Below the pieces are notes generated by a model that did no database searches, was not told the origin of the DNA, and saw nothing but the letters and a program-made list of their open reading frames with translations. A DNA stretch of 64,000 nucleotides from Acidipropionibacterium jensenii DSM 20535 (lineage in GTDB: Bacteria > Actinomycetota > Actinomycetes > Propionibacteriales > Propionibacteriaceae): positions 1-64,000 of the forward strand of contig NZ_AUDD01000006.1 in NCBI RefSeq assembly GCF_000425285.1. Reading direction: 5' to 3'. Positions 1-49,600 of the stretch are shown piece after piece (position 1 is the stretch's first letter; the number at the start of each line of letters is the position of its first letter). The translations under genes and the position numbers were made by a program.

Positions 1-354
1 TTCATGACCCGGGCTCTGACCTTCTTCGAATCCATCGGGGTCGCCGTAAAGGCCGTGATGACCGACAACGGGGCCTGCTACCGGTCCCGGGTCTTCAGCC
101 AGGTCCTCGACGACGCCAAGATCGGTCACAAGTGGACCCGGCCGTACCGGCCTCAGACCAATGGGAAGGTCGAACGGTTCAACCGGTCCCTGGCCGCCGA
201 GTGGGCCTACGCCCGCGACTACACCAGTGAAACTGAACGCGAAGCGGCCTACACGGAATGGTTGCATCACTACAATCACCACAGACCCCACACCGGTATC
301 GGCGGCCAGACCCCCTCAGAACGTGTTCACAACCTCACGGGGAAGTACATCTAG
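1..354 (+). CDS. IS481/IS3-type transposase, C-terminal part (cut by window edge)
   Basis: The frame is open from base 1, so the start lies outside the window and only about 117 residues are visible. They form the end of an rve integrase core. An Asp in MTDNG and a Glu in GKVERFN are separated by 35 residues, the DD(35)E spacing of this transposase class. The end HHYNHHRPHTGIGG-TPSERV is typical of IS481 transposases. The protein would cut and rejoin element ends. I could not identify the terminal inverted repeat downstream, so the right edge of the element is not fixed. It sits at the edge of a region full of gene fragments. Confidence 0.85.
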   Translation, partial: FMTRALTFFESIGVAVKAVMTDNGACYRSRVFSQVLDDAKIGHKWTRPYRPQTNGKVERFNRSLAAEWAYARDYTSETEREAAYTEWLHHYNHHRPHTGIGGQTPSERVHNLTGKYI

Positions 355-4874: not shown

Positions 4875-4899
4875 GAGACGCACGAGGAGGATCGTGATC

Positions 4900-5160
4900 A
4901 TGTCTATCAGTGCCAGCGAGGCGCGCAGGACGCTGTTCCCGCTCATCGAGCGCATCAATGAAGACCGCGAGGCCATCGAGATCGTCTCCCGCAAGGGCAA
5001 CGCAGTGTTGATGCCCGCCGACGAGTACACGGCCTGGCAGGAGACGGCCTATCTGTTCCGCTCACCTGCGAATGCTCGGCGACTGCTCGATGCCTACGAG
5101 CGTGCCCGCGCTGGGAAGGTCGAGACGCACGCCCTCGACCGTGCGGACGAGGATGCTTGA
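4900..5160 (+). CDS. yefM: YefM/Phd family antitoxin
   Basis: 86 aa starting MSISASEARRTLFPLIERIN. ATG 4900 is preferred over GTG 4894 because GAGGAGG (4884-4890) is better spaced from it. The N-terminal half is the DNA-binding YefM/PhdYeF domain, with the typical VMPADEYTAWQETAYLFRSP. The C-terminal part is acidic and probably unfolded until it wraps around the toxin. The stop is directly followed by the yoeB GTG, so the two are translationally coupled. It probably represses its own promoter through the upstream palindrome. Confidence 0.92.
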   Translation: MSISASEARRTLFPLIERINEDREAIEIVSRKGNAVLMPADEYTAWQETAYLFRSPANARRLLDAYERARAGKVETHALDRADEDA

Positions 5161-5415
5161 GTGCGGCTGGTCTGGGACCCGTCTGCATGGGAGGACTACA
5201 CGCACTGGCAGACCATCGATCGTCGCGTGCTGAAGCGAGTCAACACGCTCATCGACTCCTGCCTTCGTGAGCCGTTCGCTGGTATCGGGAAACCGGAGCA
5301 GTTGAAGTATGGCGCGCAGGGGGCATGGTCGCGCCGTATCACCGATGAGCACCGGCTGGTGTATCTCGTCGACGGGGATGACCTCGTGATCCTCCAGGCC
5401 CGCTACCACTACTGA
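5161..5415 (+). CDS. yoeB: YoeB family ribosome-dependent mRNA interferase toxin
   Basis: 84 aa from GTG 5161, immediately after the yefM stop. The start RLVWDPSAWEDYTHWQTIDR and the end RITDEHRLVY...ARYHY are diagnostic. The conserved Glu (EPFAGIGKPE), Arg (SRRITDEHR) and terminal His-Tyr needed for mRNA cleavage on the ribosome are all present, so the toxin looks active. Length matches the family (84 aa in E. coli). The imperfect hairpin formed by GGAGACTC (5463-5470) and GAGTCTCC (5492-5499) could be its terminator. Confidence 0.95.
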   Translation: MRLVWDPSAWEDYTHWQTIDRRVLKRVNTLIDSCLREPFAGIGKPEQLKYGAQGAWSRRITDEHRLVYLVDGDDLVILQARYHY

Positions 5416-40578: not shown

Positions 40579-42032
40579 CAGAACGACTCCTGGTGGCGGA
40601 CCCGGGAACGCCGGGCGAGGAAGGTCACCAGGAATCCCAGCACCAGGGCGGCGATGACCCCGATATTGGCCCACGCCCAGGAGCCCTCCCTGCCGCCCAG
40701 GCCCAACGGCCCGAGGAGGTATCCCTGCCAGTCGTTCCAGCCGACCCCGGGGTACTGGTTGATGACCAGACCCCAGCCGATCGCGGTGACCACGACGAGG
40801 GTGATCAGGGAGACCCAGTCCACCGCACCGTACCGACCCTCGGGGCGGAACAGATCTGCGTCGTCGTAGGCCCGGCGCCGCAGCGCGATGTCGGACATCA
40901 TGATCCCCGCCCAGGCCGCCAGCGGAACTCCCAGGGTGACCAGGAAGGACTGGAAGGGGGAGATGAAGTTCGGGGCGAGGAAGACCACGTAGATGGTGCC
41001 GACGGTGAGGATGACACCGTCGATGAGGGAGGCGGCGGGCCTGGGGATCCTGATCCCGAGGCTGAGCAGGGTGAGGCCGGAGGAGTAGATGCCGTTGATC
41101 GCCCCCGACAGCAGGGAGAGCACCGCCACCACCAGGAAGGGCACCAGGAACCAGGTCGGCAGGATCGTCGCGAGGGCGCCGACCGGGTCCACCTGGACGG
41201 CCTCGGACAGGTTCTTCGAGGAGCCCACCAGCAACAGGCCGAAGGTGATGAGGAAGACCGGTCCGAGGGACCCGCCGAAGGTGTTCCAGAACACGATCGA
41301 GCCGCCCCGGGCCTCGCGGCTCTGGTAGCGCGACCAGTCGGCGGCGATGTTGACCCAGCCCAGCCCCATCCCCGTCATCACCATGGTCAGCGCCCCGACC
41401 ACCGACTGCCAGGGTCCCGACGGGATGGCCGCGACGGCGTCCCAGTGGATCGCCCGCACCGCCATCACGAGGTAGATGATCGTCACGATGCCGGTGACCC
41501 AGGTGAGCACCGACTGCATCCTCATGATGATGTGATAGCCGGCCACCGCCCCCAGCACGATGAGCAGGGCGACGACGATCGCGGCGATGACCTTGACCGT
41601 GGTCCCGGAGCTCCAGCCGAGTCGGGAGAAGACCGTCGCGGTGGCCAGCACCGCGCTGATCGCCAGGGAGGTCTCCCAGCCGATCGAGGTGATCCAGGAG
41701 ATGATGCCCGGAACCTTGTTGCCCTGCACCCCGAAGGCCGCCCGGGAGGCGACCATGGTCGGCGCCGAGCCGCGCTTGCCGGCGATCGCGATCACCCCGC
41801 AGAAGATGAAGGAGACGACGACTCCCAGCAGGGTGGCGACCGTCGCCTGCCAGAAGGAGATCCCGAAACCGAGCACGAATGCCCCGTAGGACATCCCGAA
41901 CACCGAGATGTTGGAGGCGAACCATGGCAGGAACAGATTGCGCGGCCTGGCGGTGCGCTCGGATTCCTCGATGATCTCGATCCCGGTCATCTCGATGCCT
42001 GCGGAGCGACGTGTCGACTCAGATGCGGACAT
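40578..42032 (-). CDS. NCS1 family permease (cytosine/purine/hydantoin/allantoin type)
   Basis: 484 aa from ATG 42032, preferred over ATG 42038 because AGGAG then sits seven bases upstream. Twelve membrane helices with RPRNLFLPWFASNISVFGMS at the start, ASRAAFGVQGNKVPG and WETSLAISAVLATATVFSR. The family imports nucleobases, hydantoins, allantoin or pyridoxine by Na+ or H+ symport. The downstream hydrolase may process the substrate. Confidence 0.9.
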   Translation of the reverse strand: MSASESTRRSAGIEMTGIEIIEESERTARPRNLFLPWFASNISVFGMSYGAFVLGFGISFWQATVATLLGVVVSFIFCGVIAIAGKRGSAPTMVASRAAFGVQGNKVPGIISWITSIGWETSLAISAVLATATVFSRLGWSSGTTVKVIAAIVVALLIVLGAVAGYHIIMRMQSVLTWVTGIVTIIYLVMAVRAIHWDAVAAIPSGPWQSVVGALTMVMTGMGLGWVNIAADWSRYQSREARGGSIVFWNTFGGSLGPVFLITFGLLLVGSSKNLSEAVQVDPVGALATILPTWFLVPFLVVAVLSLLSGAINGIYSSGLTLLSLGIRIPRPAASLIDGVILTVGTIYVVFLAPNFISPFQSFLVTLGVPLAAWAGIMMSDIALRRRAYDDADLFRPEGRYGAVDWVSLITLVVVTAIGWGLVINQYPGVGWNDWQGYLLGPLGLGGREGSWAWANIGVIAALVLGFLVTFLARRSRVRHQESF

Positions 42033-42095
42033 GGTCATTCTCCTGGTGGGCGGCGGACGGCTGCATGCGCGCCCAATTGTGTCAGCCCAGCGGTC

Positions 42096-42860
42096 TCAAC
42101 GGGAGGAGTAGCGGCGTCGTGCCACCAGGACACCGATCAGCACGGCCAGCATGCCCCATCCGAGAACGAGGAGGATCGCAGTCCGACGTGAGATGTCGAT
42201 GAAGAGGATGCTCGCCGGATCGTGGTAGAGAAGCCGCCAGGGGCCACTCAGGGGATGGAGTACCTGAATGGCGGTCCGTCCCGTTCCCACGTACATGAGA
42301 ACGGCCATGAAGGATCCAGCCATAACCAGCAGCACCACGAGGGCGGTCCTCGCCGACCATCCGCAGGCGTGGCAGAGAAGGGCGGTCGCCAGGGTGGCGA
42401 CGACGATCACCATGGTCGAGACGCCCGCCTCGCGCAGCGGATCGGCTCCTGCGAGGGAGAGGGCCGGAAGACCATCGCGCAGCCAGCCGCCCAGCCCGAC
42501 CAGCGCGGCGACCAGGCAGCTGCCGGCCGCCAGCAGGAGGGAGGCGGCGAGGGCGCAGGCCAGGTCGAGGGCGATGCGGGTGTGTCCATGGGTCCCGCAG
42601 AGCCGCTGTTCGCGGTCCAGACCGGCGTCCCGGTCGGCTCCGCACAGCGACGCGGTGATCGCCACCGCGGCCAGCCCTCCCGGCCAACGGCACAGTGTCA
42701 GGGCGGTGGTGGCTGCCCCGATGGGGTTGATGGCGGAGAGTCCGTCGATGAGCGGTCTCCACAGGCCGAGGATCCCGCCGGTGATCAGGGTCGCCGTCAG
42801 GAGTCGTCTCGTCCTCAGCCGACGAATGGCGATGAGGACACGGGTGTGCAGCTCGGTCAT
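42096..42860 (-). CDS. ABC-2-type permease-like membrane protein B
   Basis: 254 aa from ATG 42860, overlapping the preceding gene by ATGA. Six membrane helices, ending IGVLVARRRYSSR. Sequence resembles no named exporter closely. Together with the 388-aa membrane protein and the ATPase it likely forms one exporter, the last part of the five-gene operon that starts at 46244. The role in export or immunity is inferred from context. Confidence 0.75.
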   Translation of the reverse strand: MTELHTRVLIAIRRLRTRRLLTATLITGGILGLWRPLIDGLSAINPIGAATTALTLCRWPGGLAAVAITASLCGADRDAGLDREQRLCGTHGHTRIALDLACALAASLLLAAGSCLVAALVGLGGWLRDGLPALSLAGADPLREAGVSTMVIVVATLATALLCHACGWSARTALVVLLVMAGSFMAVLMYVGTGRTAIQVLHPLSGPWRLLYHDPASILFIDISRRTAILLVLGWGMLAVLIGVLVARRRYSSR

Positions 42861-44023
42861 CGATAGCAGTCCTCCTGCTCCGAGACTCCGGAGACGAGCC
42901 AGCCCTTCTCGTTCTTCACCATGCAGAGCCCCATCTGCGAGCCGTTCACCCGCACCTGAGCGTGTCCCTTGTCGTCGACGCGGTCCAGCAGGACGGTGGC
43001 TCCGGACGGCAGACTGGCGAAGGCCCAGACGGAGTCTCCCAGGGTTCTTCGCGCCGAACCGTCCACCGACAGCCTGTCGGCCCGGCTGGAGTTGGTGCGC
43101 AGGGAGAGCAGGAAGTCCTCGGCCCTCTGTTGGGGTGATGTACCGGCAAACCGCTCGAGCAGGAGGAAGGGCCGTGCATTCATCGGAACGGTGGCGGTCG
43201 CCAGGCCGGGGATCACAGCTCCGGCGGCCAGGCAGCCCGCCAGGGGGATGGCGATCCATCCGCGCAGGCTCCGCCGCCGGTCCCCCCGGGTGGCCGTGGT
43301 GGTGGTCCGGGGTTCGCGGAGAGCGGGGCGGGAGAACAGGGCGTTGAGGGCGACCACCGTCCAAACTGCCCCAGAGAGCAGACAGAGTTGCAGGACCCGC
43401 GTCCCGTAGGGGTAGTAGATACTGGGGGCGGCGTGCAGGGCGCGCAGAGCCGCGGTGGGCAGCAGTACGCGCACCAGGTCGAGGACAGGATTGTCGGGCA
43501 GGTACACCAGCGCCAGGGCGACTCCCACGGCAGCCACAGCCAGACCTATGGCTGGTCCGATACGTACCGCGTGGATCAGGGCTGCGGCCCAGGCTGTGAC
43601 GAGGAGGCCGCGCAGCAGGATCAGCCCGATACTTGCCGGCCATGGGGCCAGAGCCGTCACCGTGAGAGCCGGGCCGAGCCGGGACAGGGCCAGTGACGCC
43701 CCACCGGCGAGCAGGCACCAGGCGAGAGCGAGAGTGCAGGCCACCAGAAGGCGCTGGGCGGTCCACCGGCGCTCGTCCAGGCCGGTGGACCGGCGATCTC
43801 GGCGAATGGAGTCCTGGGCGTCGGGTCCGAATACCCAGAAGGAGATGAGCACGCAGGTGGCGGGCAGGATCTGGTCGGCCATCGAGTCGAAACCGCCGAG
43901 CACTTGGCGCCAGTTGAGGGTGACGCCCTTGATGACGCCCATCCAGGCAGCGACGACGGCCCACACGGCCAGCCCGACCACCAGGAGCGGCGAGCGCAGC
44001 GCGATGCGCCATGCGGTGCGCAT
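42857..44023 (-). CDS. ABC-2-type permease-like membrane protein A
   Basis: 388 aa, directly after the ATPase (a one-base overlap of stop and start regions). Six to seven membrane helices in residues 1-280, with FGPDAQDSIRRDRRSTGLDE between helices 2 and 3. The last 110 residues are soluble and extracytoplasmic: FLLLERFAGTSPQQRAEDFL, then a small domain with two Cys (MGLCMVKNEKGWLVSGVSEQ and EDCYR). Such a domain might bind the secreted partner. No known family recognised. Confidence 0.75.
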   Translation of the reverse strand: MRTAWRIALRSPLLVVGLAVWAVVAAWMGVIKGVTLNWRQVLGGFDSMADQILPATCVLISFWVFGPDAQDSIRRDRRSTGLDERRWTAQRLLVACTLALAWCLLAGGASLALSRLGPALTVTALAPWPASIGLILLRGLLVTAWAAALIHAVRIGPAIGLAVAAVGVALALVYLPDNPVLDLVRVLLPTAALRALHAAPSIYYPYGTRVLQLCLLSGAVWTVVALNALFSRPALREPRTTTTATRGDRRRSLRGWIAIPLAGCLAAGAVIPGLATATVPMNARPFLLLERFAGTSPQQRAEDFLLSLRTNSSRADRLSVDGSARRTLGDSVWAFASLPSGATVLLDRVDDKGHAQVRVNGSQMGLCMVKNEKGWLVSGVSEQEDCYR

Positions 44024-44721
44024 CAGGTGAGGCCGATCGCGGAGAAGTACAGGTCCTCGATGGTGGCTCCCTCGGCGAGGTCGGCGGTGGCGCCTCCAAG
44101 GATCTGTTCGCCGCCGTTCATCATGACGTAGGAGTCGCAGATCTGCTGCACCTCGTGGAGCATGTGGCTGGACAGCACGATGGCGTGGCCGGCCGCCTTG
44201 AGATTGGCGACGATCTCGCGGAACCGGTGCAGGAAGACTGGATCGAGTCCGTTGGTGGGCTCGTCGAGAACGATGACGGGGGAGGAGCAGACGAGAAGCC
44301 GGGCGATCCCCAGGCGCTGCCTCATGCCTTGGCTGTACTTGGAGTAGTGCAGCCGGGAGTCCTCCAGCTCGACGTTCGCCAGGGCTGCGGCGATGCGTCC
44401 GATGCGTTCGGAGTACCCGCCACTGAAGGCCCGCAAATTCTCCCGTGCCGACAGGAACGGGTAGAAGGCGGGTTCCTCGATCATTCCGGTGATCGACACC
44501 TCGGGGCCCAGCCGTACGGGCTCCTTCCCGCCGACCGTGAGGGTTCCCGATGCGATCGACGCCAGCCCGCAGATCATCTTGAGCTCAGTGGTCTTCCCGG
44601 CCCCGTTGGCGCCGACCAGCCCGAGGCACGAACCCGCTTCCACCGTGAAGGTGACCGGCCCGATGCGCGACCCGTTGGAGAAGGTGTGCGAGAGTCCGGA
44701 CACCGCAAGGGTGCTGCTCAC
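44023..44721 (-). CDS. ABC transporter ATP-binding protein (bacteriocin-type operon)
   Basis: 232 aa from GTG 44721, which overlaps the previous stop by GTGA as elsewhere in this operon; ATG 44736 is an alternative without a ribosome site. Walker A GANGAGKTTELK, signature reading YSQGMRQRLG in place of LSGGQ, Walker B VIVLDEPTNGLD, switch His LSSHMLHEV. This CcmA/BcrA/LanF-like type serves lantibiotic immunity or ABC-2 exporters. Confidence 0.92.
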   Translation of the reverse strand: MSSTLAVSGLSHTFSNGSRIGPVTFTVEAGSCLGLVGANGAGKTTELKMICGLASIASGTLTVGGKEPVRLGPEVSITGMIEEPAFYPFLSARENLRAFSGGYSERIGRIAAALANVELEDSRLHYSKYSQGMRQRLGIARLLVCSSPVIVLDEPTNGLDPVFLHRFREIVANLKAAGHAIVLSSHMLHEVQQICDSYVMMNGGEQILGGATADLAEGATIEDLYFSAIGLT

Positions 44722-45806
44722 GGGTTCTTCCGCCATTCGACGTGGCCGTCGGGATACAGCAGCACGAGGGCACCGGACGCGGTGAATCGGGAGGCGATAG
44801 CGCCCTTGTAGGTGGTCCGGATTCTCCCGTTCGCAGTGGACACCGCGATACCCTGAGGAGTCCGGAAACTGGCCGTCGACCCGTCGCGGGACGCGGTCGG
44901 AATTGACTCCGTCGGTTCCTTCACGGTTCGCAGAAGAGCTCCCTTGGAACTGAAGAACCTCAGGACCGAGGTGTAGCTGGTCGTGGCTCCGAGACTGGCG
45001 CTGAGCGATGCGGTGATGAAACCGGTGCGGCTGATGGTGCAGGCTCCCAGATCGTTGGCCGTGACGCCCAGATCGAGGGGCAGGGTTCTGCCCTGCTGAT
45101 CGACCAGCCGTGCCTGTTCGCCGATGGGGACGAGGGATGTCCCGTTGGGGCCGACGCAGTTTCCGCCCTCGCCCGCGATCTTGAACGGATGACCCAGGGA
45201 CGGCTTGCCGTTGACCTGTGTGGCCACGGTGGCCCAGGTGGTACTGCCCTCGGTCGTCGTGATGACCCCGGGGCCGTCCTGCGTACCGCCCCAGGTGGGG
45301 GCGCGGCCGGGAATGCGGATCGGGGCCGACTCACCTGTGGCGGTGGCCCAGGTGGCTTTCGTGGTGCCGTCCTTGGAGGTGCGCAGGACGAGTACTGCCC
45401 CGCCCAGTCGTACCGGGGCCCACAGCTGGAAACCGTCGGCGAGGGGGACAGCGGGCTGGCCCCTGAGGAGTGGGGTGGGGGTCTTCACCACCGGCGAGTT
45501 CCATGCGTCGATGTCACCGGTGAGGATCGCGTTGGGGCACGAGTCGACGCAGACGGCGTTCGTCCTGGAGGACGGCCCCATCCACACCGTCCGGCCCGAG
45601 GAGGCGATCCCGCGGGTGCTGTCGGAGCTGGCGATCACCGCGCCACTGTCGTCGGCGGCGAGGAACATGAACGGTGTCAACGCGTCCTTGCCGGTGCTGA
45701 GATCCTCGGGGGACGGGCTCGAGGCGGACTGCGGCCTGAACAGCAGTACCGCCGCGATCACGACTACGACCGCGGCGACACTGCTCACGAGGGCTTTCTT
45801 CTTCAT
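44718..45806 (-). CDS. Membrane-anchored secreted protein, possible beta-propeller
   Basis: 362 aa. A single N-terminal membrane helix (residues 4-23) without a clear cleavage site is followed by about 340 extracytoplasmic residues. It contains repeated Gly/Trp/Thr-rich strands (VIASSDSTRGIASSGRTVWM, FQLWAPVRLGGAVLVLRTSK, PDGHVEWRKNP), suggesting a beta-propeller or beta-sandwich. Two close Cys are in NAVCVDSCPNA. It starts 12 bp after the small secreted protein gene. I know no homologous family with an assigned role; a surface receptor or immunity partner is one guess. Confidence 0.7.
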   Translation of the reverse strand: MKKKALVSSVAAVVVVIAAVLLFRPQSASSPSPEDLSTGKDALTPFMFLAADDSGAVIASSDSTRGIASSGRTVWMGPSSRTNAVCVDSCPNAILTGDIDAWNSPVVKTPTPLLRGQPAVPLADGFQLWAPVRLGGAVLVLRTSKDGTTKATWATATGESAPIRIPGRAPTWGGTQDGPGVITTTEGSTTWATVATQVNGKPSLGHPFKIAGEGGNCVGPNGTSLVPIGEQARLVDQQGRTLPLDLGVTANDLGACTISRTGFITASLSASLGATTSYTSVLRFFSSKGALLRTVKEPTESIPTASRDGSTASFRTPQGIAVSTANGRIRTTYKGAIASRFTASGALVLLYPDGHVEWRKNP

Positions 45807-45818
45807 GGTTGTGCGGGC

Positions 45819-46244
45819 TCAGAAATTCTTCCTGGCGGCGGTGCACTGAGGATCGACACCGGAACGATCGAAGATGGCCGTCCAGAAGATGGACTCATGA
45901 TCAATAGGGCGAGTCTTGGCGTTCTGCATTCCGGTGTGGCCGTTTCCGAAGGGCATGCTGTCGGGTGAGTTCCATGCCCACTTCTGAGTAGCACCAGAGT
46001 AGAGCCTGATGTTGACATTGTTCTTTCCGCCGGTCGGCGTGCCATTGATGGTCCAGCTCGCGAGCTTCCAGACGTGGTAGCCACCACTGTCGCTGTATGT
46101 GGCCTGCGCGTTGAGATTGTTTCCGCTCGCGGAACAACTCCCGGTTGCGGTGTAATTGCCTGCCTCGGCTGCGGTGGGGACCCCCACAGCCAGAGCGATC
46201 GCGGCGGCAACGGCACCCGCCGCCCTCCATCGTGTGATGAGCAT
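45819..46244 (-). CDS. Small secreted protein, candidate bacteriocin or signal protein
   Basis: 141 aa from ATG 46244 (AGAAAGG upstream). The signal peptide (MLITRWRAAGAVAAAIALAVG, cleavage after AEA) leaves a mature protein of about 113 residues. It has two Cys (near its start in TGSCSASG and near its end in DPQCTAARKN), and a Trp/Asn/Gly-rich core (VWKLASWTINGTPTGGKNN, KWAWNSPDSMPFGN). It heads a five-gene operon with a surface protein and ABC exporter. The set resembles lactococcin-972 clusters in layout only, not in sequence. Small secreted proteins of a similar look exist in Streptomyces, without known function as far as I recall. Confidence 0.75.
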   Translation of the reverse strand: MLITRWRAAGAVAAAIALAVGVPTAAEAGNYTATGSCSASGNNLNAQATYSDSGGYHVWKLASWTINGTPTGGKNNVNIRLYSGATQKWAWNSPDSMPFGNGHTGMQNAKTRPIDHESIFWTAIFDRSGVDPQCTAARKNF

Positions 46245-46628
46245 ATCGGACCTTTCTCGAACTGTCTGGTGTGACGCTAGCACCGTCCATGGATACGGAG
46301 TTTCTGCCATCGGCATCTTGGTCGAAAGTCACGGAATCAGGAGAGACGGTTTCCTTTTTCTCGGCATCTTGGTCGAAAGTCACGGCATCGGGAGGCGCAT
46401 GTCGTTGGTGCCCACATCGCTGGAGTGAGGCCCACCTCGATCCAGGCTCCGCCGAAGTCCGCGAACTGGGGTCACGGGGCATGGACGCGACGGTTGTCCG
46501 ACGGGAGTCACCTCGGTGGCCGGGATGGTTGACTCGCTGCATGTCGTCGGCGTTGTTCAGTGTGCGATCGTCGGTTGAGTTCACCCGAGGATCGAACACA
46601 TACCGCCCGGCGGGACTATCGTCCCGTC
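46245..46628. other. 384-bp divergent regulatory region between the secreted-protein operon and putA
   Basis: No gene is supported here. It contains the 25-bp direct repeats at 46310-46385, a TAGCGT hexamer on the minus strand about 35 bases from the small-protein start, and a TATCGT hexamer 12 nt before putA. A minus-strand open frame through the repeats looks like a translated repeat rather than a gene. Confidence 0.6.
46310..46385. repeat. 25-bp direct repeats upstream of the secreted-protein operon
   Basis: Two exact copies (46310-46334 and 46361-46385) share the core CATCTTGGTCGAAAGTCACG and start 51 bp apart, five helical turns. The 26 bp behind each copy are partly similar, so the unit may be a decayed 51-bp duplication. 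The location suits regulator binding sites for the operon. Confidence 0.8.
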
Positions 46629-49600
46629 ATGGGCACCCACGGCACTGACCATGACGACCGCCACGACGAGAACCCCGAGGATTCCTGGAGCTCTGCCGGT
46701 CCCCGTCCGGCCGAACTCGCCGATGAGGCCGTCCAGCTCGCCCGTCGATGGGCCCTCGACAACTCTTCGCAGCAGGGCCGGGCCGGATCGCAGCAGCGCC
46801 GGACCGGGACCGTCGCACGGTGGCGCGGGATGCTCCCCCGGGACCGCAGCAGAGTCGCCGCGACCCTGCTCTCCCAGGTTCTGAGGGAACCCTCCGGGCT
46901 GCCCTTCACCGTGGAGTTCATCGACCGGGTGATGCGCCCCGAGGATCCCGGCACCGCCGCGGCGGCCTTGGCGCGACTGTCCCGCACCGACGCATCCTTC
47001 CTTCCCCCGGTCCTGCGCGCCGGGGTCCGGATGGCCGGCCGGACCGCCCCCCACGCCCCCCGCCTGGTGGTCGGCCTGGCCCGTGGCGTGCTGCGACAGA
47101 TGGTCGGACACCTCATCATCGACGCCCGCCCCCGGGCACTCGGCCGCGCCCTGCGCCGGCTGCGCAAGGACGGTGTGAGGCTCAATCTCAACCTGCTCGG
47201 CGAGGCGGTGCTCGGCGACCGGGAGGCCGCCGCCCGACTGGCCGGCACCAAGAGGCTGCTGGCCCGCGACGACGTCGACTACGTCTCGGTGAAAATCTCG
47301 GCGGTGGTCAACCAGCTGGACCTGTGGGCCCACGACGCCACCGTCCAGGAGGTCGCCGACCGGCTCGCACCGCTGTTCAGACTGGCCGCCCGCTCGGCCA
47401 CCGCCAAGTTCATCAATCTCGACATGGAGGAGTACCACGACCTGGACCTCACCATCGACGTCTTCCAGAACCTGTTGGACCGCCCGGAGTTCCTGACCCT
47501 GGAGGCCGGCATCGTGCTGCAGGCCTACCTCCCCGACTCCCTGGCCGCCGCCCAGCGGCTCACCGCATGGGCCGACCGGCGCACCGCCCGAGGGGGAGCC
47601 GGCATCAAGATCCGGCTGGTCAAGGGAGCCAACCTGCCGATGGAGAAGGTCGACGCCGAGCTGCACGGCTGGGCCCAGGCCCCCTGGCACTCCAAGGTCG
47701 CCACCGACAGCAACTACCTGCGCGTCCTGGACTGGGCGCTGACCCCCGAGCGCACCCGATCGGTGCGCTACGGGGTGGCCGGGCACAACCTGTTCTCCAT
47801 CGCCATGGCCAAGCTGCTGGCCGATCGGCGCGGGGTCGGCGACCGGGTCGAGTTCGAGATGCTGCTCGGGATGGTCCCCGACCAGGTCGAACGGGTCGGT
47901 GCCGATGTCGGCGGGGTTCTGCTGTACACCCCGGTCGTCCATCCCGACCACTTCGACGTCGCCATCTCCTACCTGGTGCGACGCCTCGAGGAGGGGGCCG
48001 CCGCCGAGAACTTCATGTCGGCGGTCTTCGAGCTCGGCCGCGACCCGGACCTGTTCTCCCGCGAGGAGGCCCGGTTCCGCGCCGCCCTCGACGGCCTGAC
48101 CCGCACCGTTCCGGCGCCCAACCGGCACCAGGAGATCGACCGGGTGCCCGACCCGGCCGATGGCTACCGTCCCAGTACCGACTCCGACCCGGCCCTGGCC
48201 CCGGTGCGCGAGTGGGCCGCCGAGGTGGCGGCGGTGATGGACCACTGCCGACTGGGAGCCACCACGGTGGCCTCCCACCACCTCGCCAGCGTCGAGGAGG
48301 TCGACGACGCGGTCGCGACTGGCCTGGCCGCCCAGCCGGGCTGGAACGGTCTGGGCGCCGCCCGCCGTGCCGAGATCCTGCGGGAGGTGGCCGCCGAGTT
48401 CGCCCGACGTCGCGGGGACCTGCTGGCGATCGCCGGCGCCGAGACCGGCAAGATCGTCGCCGAGGGGGATGTCGAGATCTCCGAGGCGATCGACTTCGCC
48501 ACCTGGTACGCCAACCACGCGATCGGCCTGGAACAGGTGGACGGGGCGACCTTCACCCCGCCCCGGCTCACGGTGGTCGCCCCGCCGTGGAACTTCCCGC
48601 TGTCCATCACCGCCGGATCGGTGCTGGCCCCGCTGGCCGCCGGATCGGCGGTGCTGCTCAAGCCGGCCCCGCAGGCCCGACGCTGCGCCGCGGTGATCGC
48701 CGAGTGCCTCTGGGGGGCCGGGGTCCCGCGCGAGGTCCTCCAGCTGGGCGACGCCGCCGAGGACGAGGTGGGACGCCGACTCATCAGCCATCCCGACGTC
48801 GAGCGGGTCATCCTCACCGGGGCCCATGACACCGCGACGCTGTTCCGCTCCTGGCGCCACGACCTGCCACTGCTGGCCGAGACCAGTGGCAAGAACGCCA
48901 TCATCGTCACCGAGAACGCCGACTACGACCTGGCCGCCGCAGACATCGTGCGCTCGGCCTTCGGCAACGCCGGCCAGAAGTGCTCGGCCGCCTCCCTGGT
49001 GATCCTGGTAGGTCAGGCCTACCGGTCGAAACGGCTGCGCCACCAGATCCTGGACGCCGCGGCCTCCCTGCGGCTCGGCGACCCCAGTGACCTGGCCACC
49101 CAGCTCGGGCCCCTCATCCAGCCCGCCGAGGGCAAACTCCTCGAGGGCCTCACCACCCTGGACCCCGGCCAGACCTGGGCCCTGAGACCCCGCCGGATCG
49201 ACCCCTCGGGCCGGTTCTGGAGTCCCGGCGTGCGCGCCGGGGTGAGGCCGGGGGACCGCTACCACCTCACCGAGTACTTCGGCCCGATCACCGGCATCAT
49301 GTCAGCCCCCGACCTGGCCACCGCCGTCTCCTACCAGAACGGCACCCCCTACGGCCTGACCGCCGGTATCCACTCGCTGGATCCCGCCGAGATCTCCTGG
49401 TGGCTGGACCACGTCCAGGCCGGAAATCTGTACATCAACCGCGGCATCACCGGTGCGATCGTGGGCCGTCAGCCCTTCGGCGGGTGGAAGAAGTCGGCGG
49501 TCGGCCCCGGCGCCAAGGCCGGCGGCCCGAACTATCTGGCCGTGCTCGGCTCCTGGGCTCCGGCCGAACCGAGGACCCCGGCCCCCGACGGCCCGCTGTC

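What the first reader, a model, noticed from the sequence alone, without database searches (positions are those of the whole stretch)
42096..46244. Five-gene operon exporting or guarding an unrecognised small secreted protein
Seen: five overlapping or nearly touching minus-strand genes. They encode a 141-aa protein with signal peptide and two Cys, a 362-aa membrane-anchored extracytoplasmic protein, an ABC ATPase with a SQG-type signature, and two membrane proteins, one with a C-terminal extracytoplasmic domain also bearing Cys. Known: small secreted protein plus surface protein plus BcrA-like ABC transporter is the layout of bacteriocin and immunity clusters such as lactococcin 972. Inference: this is a bacteriocin-like or competition/sensing system of a new sequence family.
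Basis: partly seen in the sequence, partly recalled or inferred. Interest (0 to 1): 0.75.

Follow-up and report, generated by a model that had tools for sequence, protein, structure and literature searches.

The report
Mobile operon with guarded secreted protein
A five-gene cluster that moved recently between two dairy-type propionic acid bacteria makes a small secreted protein together with a membrane pump of the kind that can protect bacteria from their own toxins, so it may be a competition system built from protein families without a database name, but no activity has been shown.

Summary
In detail: five tightly packed minus-strand genes at 42,096-46,244 encode a 141-aa Sec-type secreted protein (P0001), a 362-aa membrane-anchored protein (P0002), an ABC ATPase (P0003) and two membrane proteins (P0004, P0005).

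New evidence. (1) The cluster is a 4.6-kb island. It is absent from the same site in two relatives, and 99.9% identical between the window's genome and A. thoenii DSM 20276, although surrounding DNA differs by about 20%: a recent exchange between species. (2) An unnamed distant actinobacterium (G404) has homologues of P0002, P0003 and P0004 in the same order, plus a membrane protein in the fifth place. (3) P0001 belongs to a sparse, unnamed family of small secreted actinobacterial proteins with two invariant cysteines. Its other known members do not sit beside this transporter, and G404 has no such gene.

Best reading: a bacteriocin-like or competition unit, P0001 being the secreted effector and P0002-P0005 a LanI/LanFEG-like guard. 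This is inference from anatomy; a pure resistance or envelope-stress module is the main rival. By the tests run here it is neither lactococcin 972 nor a member of the LanFEG model family.

The parts
45819..46244 (-). P0001, 141-aa secreted small protein (Sec-type signal, mature about 113 aa, pI 9.1, two Cys); proposed secreted effector
   Evidence: relatives in G566 (E 4.2e-10), G488 and Nonomuraea
44718..45806 (-). P0002, 362-aa protein with N-terminal membrane anchor and extracytoplasmic body (CVDSC motif); proposed LanI-like binder/sensor
   Evidence: homologue P0008 in G404, C-x3-C-P motif kept, z 6.9
44023..44736 (-). P0003, ABC ATPase (GANGAGKTT, MIEEPAFY, YSQGMRQRLG)
42857..44023 (-). 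P0004, ABC permease-like membrane protein with C-terminal extracytoplasmic domain, Cys367/Cys386
   Evidence: homologue P0009 in G404, z 12.1, same Cys pair
42096..42860 (-). P0005, second membrane protein, permease-like
   Evidence: counterpart P0010 in G404 by position, weak sequence support (z 2.6)
46310..46394 (-). two 34-nt direct repeats (94% alike), 51 nt apart, 65 nt upstream of P0001; candidate regulatory sites
   Evidence: their 23-nt core, at up to 2 mismatches, occurs only here in G000 and G003 among 5 genus genomes
42040..46615 (.). inferred extent of the accessory island, absent from the site in G001 and G004
40750..49249 (.). recombination tract: 47 mismatches in 8,500 aligned bases to G003, against 1,013 in 4,950 outside

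Best explanation
It is a mobile interbacterial-competition unit. P0001 is exported through Sec as a basic, probably disulfide-closed, beta-rich 12-kDa protein that acts on the envelope of close relatives (inferred). P0002, anchored outside the membrane, binds or senses P0001 or its target complex, as LanI does for lantibiotics (inferred). P0003 with P0004 and P0005 forms a heteromeric ABC transporter that removes P0001 from the producer's own membrane, as LanFEG does (inferred). Shown here: gene order, signal and anchor stretches, ATPase family, conservation of P0002-P0004 in order in a distant genome, membership of P0001 in a wider secreted family, and near-identity of the whole unit across a species boundary.
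For: Anatomy. Best NCBIfam model of P0003 is TIGR03740, lantibiotic protection ABC ATPase, E 1.6e-45. In G404: ATPase 44% identical over 222 residues; P0004 homologue BLASTP E 3e-7, z 12.1; P0002 homologue z 6.9. P0003 and the G404 ATPase share GANGAGKTT and MIEEPAFY, not seen in the 14 other ATPases printed (16 asked for, two gave no row). Island present in 2 of 5 genus genomes and absent from the intact site in 2 of 5. Near-identity across a species boundary. Lower GC3 in the operon (0.72-0.87) than in its two neighbours (0.92, 0.95). Precedent in the same genus: propionicin T1 is Sec-secreted and followed by an ABC gene proposed to give self-protection (PMC5756557, passages).
Against: No activity data. 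Relatives of P0001 in G566 (3), G488 and the Nonomuraea record have no such transporter next to them in the stretches read. The G404 block has no P0001 homologue. P0003 scores half of the TIGR03740 cut-off (155.5 against 309.75), and P0004/P0005 match no model. P0002's homologue is weak by BLASTP alone (E 0.009) and P0005's is not significant (E 1.1). Fold predictions are poor (mean pLDDT 53.4 and 34.9), so neither fold could be compared.
Confidence: 0.42

Rival explanations
1. A resistance or envelope-stress module: P0002-P0005 protect the cell against peptides made by other bacteria, and P0001 is a secreted decoy or wall-binding helper, not a toxin.
For: Transporter block occurs without P0001 in G404; P0001 relatives occur without the transporter; LanFEG-like transporters also serve in resistance operons without bacteriocin genes (PMC5786555, passages); recent transfer fits resistance as well as attack.
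Against: No two-component system or regulator gene lies in the operon, unlike the Cpr-type resistance operons of PMC5786555; the secreted gene is first and 12 nt from P0002, which suggests they act together.
Confidence: 0.33
2. A surface signalling or developmental unit: P0001 is a secreted signal or matrix/lectin-like protein, and P0002-P0005 take it up, sense it or handle a lipid-linked ligand.
For: P0001 is all-beta by a low-confidence prediction; its family occurs in larger-genome actinobacteria in 1-3 copies; nearest solved ATPases include ABCA lipid transporters and NosF, which are not bacteriocin systems.
Against: Patchy, recently exchanged distribution is more typical of competition genes than of development (general knowledge).
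Confidence: 0.15
3. An exporter dedicated to P0001 (type I-like secretion).
For: Co-location only.
Against: P0001 has a Sec-type signal stretch; the ATPase is of the BcrA/LanF kind, without an added peptidase domain.
Confidence: 0.05

Closest known systems
Propionicin T1 / thoeniicin 447 locus (pctA + ABC gene, A. thoenii)
   Same: Sec-secreted small positively charged bacteriocin gene followed by an ABC transporter gene proposed for self-protection, in the same genus (PMC5756557, passages)
   Different: Mature peptide 65 aa; one downstream ABC protein (424 aa, recalled). Sequences were not in hand to compare
LanI/LanFEG lantibiotic self-immunity
   Same: Anchored binder plus one ATPase and two membrane proteins (PMC5786555, passages); P0003's best NCBIfam model is TIGR03740
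   Different: Below the model cut-off; P0002 shows no lipobox; P0004 has an added extracytoplasmic domain; no lantibiotic genes recognised by eye among the genes called in the window (a rough caller that can miss small genes)
Lactococcin 972 clusters
   Same: Unmodified beta-sandwich bacteriocin (PMC9964109, passages) with membrane protein and ABC genes (layout recalled)
   Different: P0001 shows no match to that family in Pfam; it is longer and has two Cys (length and Cys content of lactococcin 972 recalled)
Cpr-type lantibiotic resistance operons
   Same: LanFEG-like transporter outside a biosynthesis cluster (PMC5786555, passages)
   Different: No two-component system here; a secreted protein gene instead

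Membership tests
Lactococcin 972 bacteriocin family | Bacteriocin matches the Pfam/NCBIfam lactococcin 972 model | tested here: not met
   P0001: 0 Pfam families at E<=1 and one weak RpfC hit (E 0.014, far below cut-off) in NCBIfam; among 6 family members only unrelated weak hits
Lactococcin 972 bacteriocin family | Sec signal peptide and adjacent ABC/membrane genes | tested here: met
   (signal judged from hydropathy and cleavage motif, not by a trained predictor)
LanFEG lantibiotic immunity transporter | ATPase reaches the TIGR03740 cut-off | tested here: not met
   155.5 bits against a cut-off of 309.75; still the best of 194 models at E<=1
LanFEG lantibiotic immunity transporter | Two six-helix permeases LanE and LanG matching their models | tested here: not met
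   P0004 and P0005: 0 families in Pfam and NCBIfam at E<=1; P0004 has an added C-terminal extracytoplasmic domain
LanFEG lantibiotic immunity transporter | Lies in a lantibiotic cluster (precursor, modification genes) | tested here: inconclusive
   none recognised by eye in the first 90 residues of genes called in the 64-kb window; no model search was run and small genes can be missed
LanFEG lantibiotic immunity transporter | Expels the antimicrobial from the producer's membrane | not testable with these tools
   needs a bench assay
Propionicin T1 | Sequence similarity of P0001 to PctA and of P0003-P0005 to the PctA-linked ABC protein | not tested
   sequences not in hand; mature lengths differ (PMC5756557)
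P0001 family (two-Cys 'DPxC' secreted proteins, defined here) | Recovered by a profile of the other members; two invariant Cys | tested here: met
   single-sequence hit E 4.2e-10 in G566; jackknife E 1.3e-11 for P0001, best of 2,000 shuffles 0.21 (rows had been chosen for likeness to P0001); both Cys invariant in 6 of 6

The most novel reading that the evidence does not exclude
P0002-P0005 is a previously undescribed, reusable self-protection cassette of Actinomycetes whose first gene slot is exchangeable: a 141-aa two-Cys antibacterial protein in Acidipropionibacterium, and possibly a 24-residue coupled peptide (L111:241-315) in G404. The P0001 family would then be a new class of unmodified antibacterial proteins spread through Actinomycetes.
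Probability: 0.15. Interest if true: 0.75.

Novelty: new variant of a known kind. Interest (0 to 1): 0.45.

Why it matters
If right, it adds an unnamed class of secreted antibacterial protein and an unnamed guard transporter in dairy-type bacteria, where narrow-spectrum inhibitors are sought. It also gives a clean natural case of a competition operon crossing a species line by recombination in its flanking core genes. Even if the function is different, two protein families (P0001, P0002) and a transporter type without a database model are defined, with conserved residues to test.

Tried and rejected
Weak hits not accepted. P0001 in the family search matched 5 of 198 genomes at E<=0.01, of which only G000 and G003 over full length; of the other three I looked at L008 (no similar secreted gene), L007 and L009 were not examined. 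In the order search it matched 2 of 293 (G000, G003). In the class search 222 of 394 genomes had a hit at E<=1, by their look mostly signal-peptide or chance matches, few examined; of the five other genomes whose surroundings I read (G566, G488, G565, G712, G680), G566 and G488 were accepted (G488 had only E 0.03 alone), the others not. The Nonomuraea hit was E 0.6 alone and is accepted on the profile. The profile A1 matched 5 of 296 class genomes; three of these (G000, G566, G488) had supplied its rows, G594 is a zincin-like protein by eye, G617 looks like a divergent member and was not used. P0002 matched 3 of 147 family genomes; the third, G197 (L012), covers 67 residues and was not accepted.

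ATPase neighbours: 111 of 197 genomes had an ATPase hit at E<=1e-35. Besides G404's I read the surroundings of seven hits, six from other genomes and G000's own paralogue on C10; none showed the block. For the two low-GC ones (L113, L114) my gene calling was poor, so a miss is possible there. P0004 alone matched only itself among 296 class genomes at E<=0.001; since it shows no G404 row, such a search can miss true homologues or did not sample them. The two-row profile A3 gave three further weak partial hits (58-95 columns, E 2e-4 to 0.01) among 163 genomes, not examined, and nothing in the two other genomes of G404's order. No plasmid hit for P0002, P0004, P0009, P0007, the G488 member, the 24-aa peptide or the intergenic region; none in phages for P0001; none in viral contigs for three family members or the repeat.

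Structures: P0001 alone mean pLDDT 53.4, no PDB match at E<=0.001; P0002 mean pLDDT 34.9, not searched further. Sequence profiles A1-A3 find no convincing PDB relative (A1's best E 0.17). The near-palindromic ~40-bp repeat at the right edge was considered as a transposon end; it looks like a dispersed REP-type element. Nine literature searches, four of them with listings cut short, listed no paper whose title or abstract start describes this operon; only PMC5756557, PMC9964109, PMC6920887 and PMC5786555 were opened, as passages.
Full report
What is there. Five minus-strand genes at 42,096-46,244 are confirmed with the sizes given: spacing is +12, -19, -1 and -4 nt. P0001 is a Sec-type secreted protein (mature about 113 aa, 12.2 kDa, pI 9.07; Cys37, Cys134), P0002 has a single N-terminal hydrophobic anchor, P0003 is an ABC ATPase, P0004 and P0005 are polytopic membrane proteins, and P0004 ends in a presumably extracytoplasmic domain with Cys367 and Cys386. 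My rough gene caller missed P0001 and P0002 in the window and took an opposite-strand ORF instead; homologues decide for them. The consensus scan found no sigma-70 promoter and no terminator. Two 34-nt direct repeats, 51 nt apart, lie 65 nt upstream of P0001; their 23-nt core, at up to two mismatches, occurs only there in G000 and G003 among the five genus genomes.

Where it is. The window is G000:C6. The other genus genomes were given without names; the contig lengths of G001 (3,651,382) and G004 (3,432,872) equal those of A. acidipropionici CGMCC1.2230 and A. virtanenii JS278 in a published table (PMC6920887, passage). G000, at 3.03 Mb, is most likely A. jensenii (inference from size and elimination).

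A recently exchanged island. Across 42,040-46,615, G000 and G003 differ at 5 of 4,576 aligned bases plus one 3-bp indel; across 40,750-49,249 at 47 of 8,500; further out in the same alignment at 1,013 of 4,950, with 455 gap columns. The five genes carry 3 synonymous and 0 non-synonymous codon differences and the indel is one codon in P0004. So the operon and about 1.3 and 2.6 kb of neighbouring DNA moved between the species recently, by recombination in the flanks (inference from the pattern). In G004 and G001 the permease gene and the proline-dehydrogenase-like gene (names by eye) are divergently transcribed across about 288 and 246 bp with no operon between. Similarity to the window ends at 41,995 or 42,009 and resumes at 46,865, with short matches at 46,686-46,733 and 46,616-46,633. 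In G002 the locus is rearranged. GC3 is 0.72 for P0001 and 0.82-0.87 for P0002-P0005, against 0.95 and 0.92 in the two neighbours: probably foreign origin, with P0001 the most different.

P0001 family. P0001 has no Pfam or PADLOC hit at E up to 1, one weak NCBIfam hit (E 0.014, far below cut-off) and weak PDB hits (best 7ona_A, named SAKe6AC, E 0.0042 over 36 residues). A relative was found by single sequence in G566 (E 4.2e-10, three copies in all, two in tandem); G488 and a Nonomuraea gerenzanensis record were weak alone (E 0.03, 0.6) and joined on their full-length likeness. A profile of the other five recovers P0001 at E 1.3e-11, G488 at 2.7e-8 and Nonomuraea at 5.8e-10 in turn, with best shuffled scores of 0.21, 0.11 and 0.007 (the decoy set also held a shorter copy of one member, which scored high as it should; the rows had been chosen for likeness to P0001, so this is not fully independent). 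Both Cys and the C-terminal F-D...D-P-x-C motif are invariant in 6 of 6. The family is rare in the sample: its profile matched 5 of 296 class genomes, three of which had supplied its rows. None of the relatives outside Acidipropionibacterium has the transporter beside it in the stretches read.

Guard block. The best ATPase hit outside G000 in 197 class genomes is in G404. There the ATPase (44% identity) is preceded by a P0002 homologue (26% in the alignment, shuffle z 6.9, same C-x3-C-P motif; BLASTP alone only E 0.009) and followed by a P0004 homologue (BLASTP E 3e-7, z 12.1, same C-terminal Cys pair) and a membrane protein in the place of P0005 (z 2.6, BLASTP E 1.1, so by position only). P0003 and the G404 ATPase share GANGAGKTT and MIEEPAFY, which the 14 other ATPases printed do not. 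G404 has no P0001 homologue upstream; a 24-codon ORF with a ribosome site, its stop overlapping the start of the P0002 homologue, is there instead (L111:241-315), with a TTGACA/TACGAT pair (by eye) from L111:165. I cannot say that it is a gene.

How it most likely works. The closest working model is lantibiotic self-immunity, LanI plus LanFEG (PMC5786555, passages), and propionicin T1, a Sec-secreted bacteriocin of A. thoenii followed by an ABC gene proposed to protect the producer (PMC5756557, passages). By analogy P0001 is the secreted effector, P0002 the anchored binder, P0003-P0005 the pump. Every functional step is inference. Membership is not claimed: the lactococcin 972 model and the TIGR03740 cut-off were tested and not met.

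Against. P0001 relatives live without the transporter and the transporter lives without P0001, so the pairing may be opportunistic and the transporter may protect against something else. Absence counts come from samples of the class, and single-sequence searches there are not sensitive.

Noticed in passing
window 46556-46610: Near-palindromic ~40-bp repeat at the right edge of the island, with several diverged copies in both orientations on G000 contig C31 and others on C2 and C11 (REP-like).
   Followed up: partly
L111:241-315 (G404): 24-codon ORF starting GTG with GGAGG upstream, its stop overlapping the start codon of the P0002 homologue; no match in plasmids.
   Followed up: partly
window 4-354 and L117:4-354: The same transposase-like fragment begins contigs C6 and C10 of G000, so the window seems to start at an insertion-sequence assembly break.
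   Followed up: no
L051:1264-3146 (G617): A divergent P0001-like secreted protein lies directly after a nucleobase-permease-like gene; in the window a permease of that look follows the operon. Probably coincidence.
   Followed up: no
window 4894-5415: Two small adjacent genes that look like a YefM/YoeB-type toxin-antitoxin pair (by eye).
   Followed up: no
L042:7756-8685 (G566): Two tandem P0001-family genes followed by an unrelated 255-aa gene; a third copy in L043:9045-9509.
   Followed up: partly
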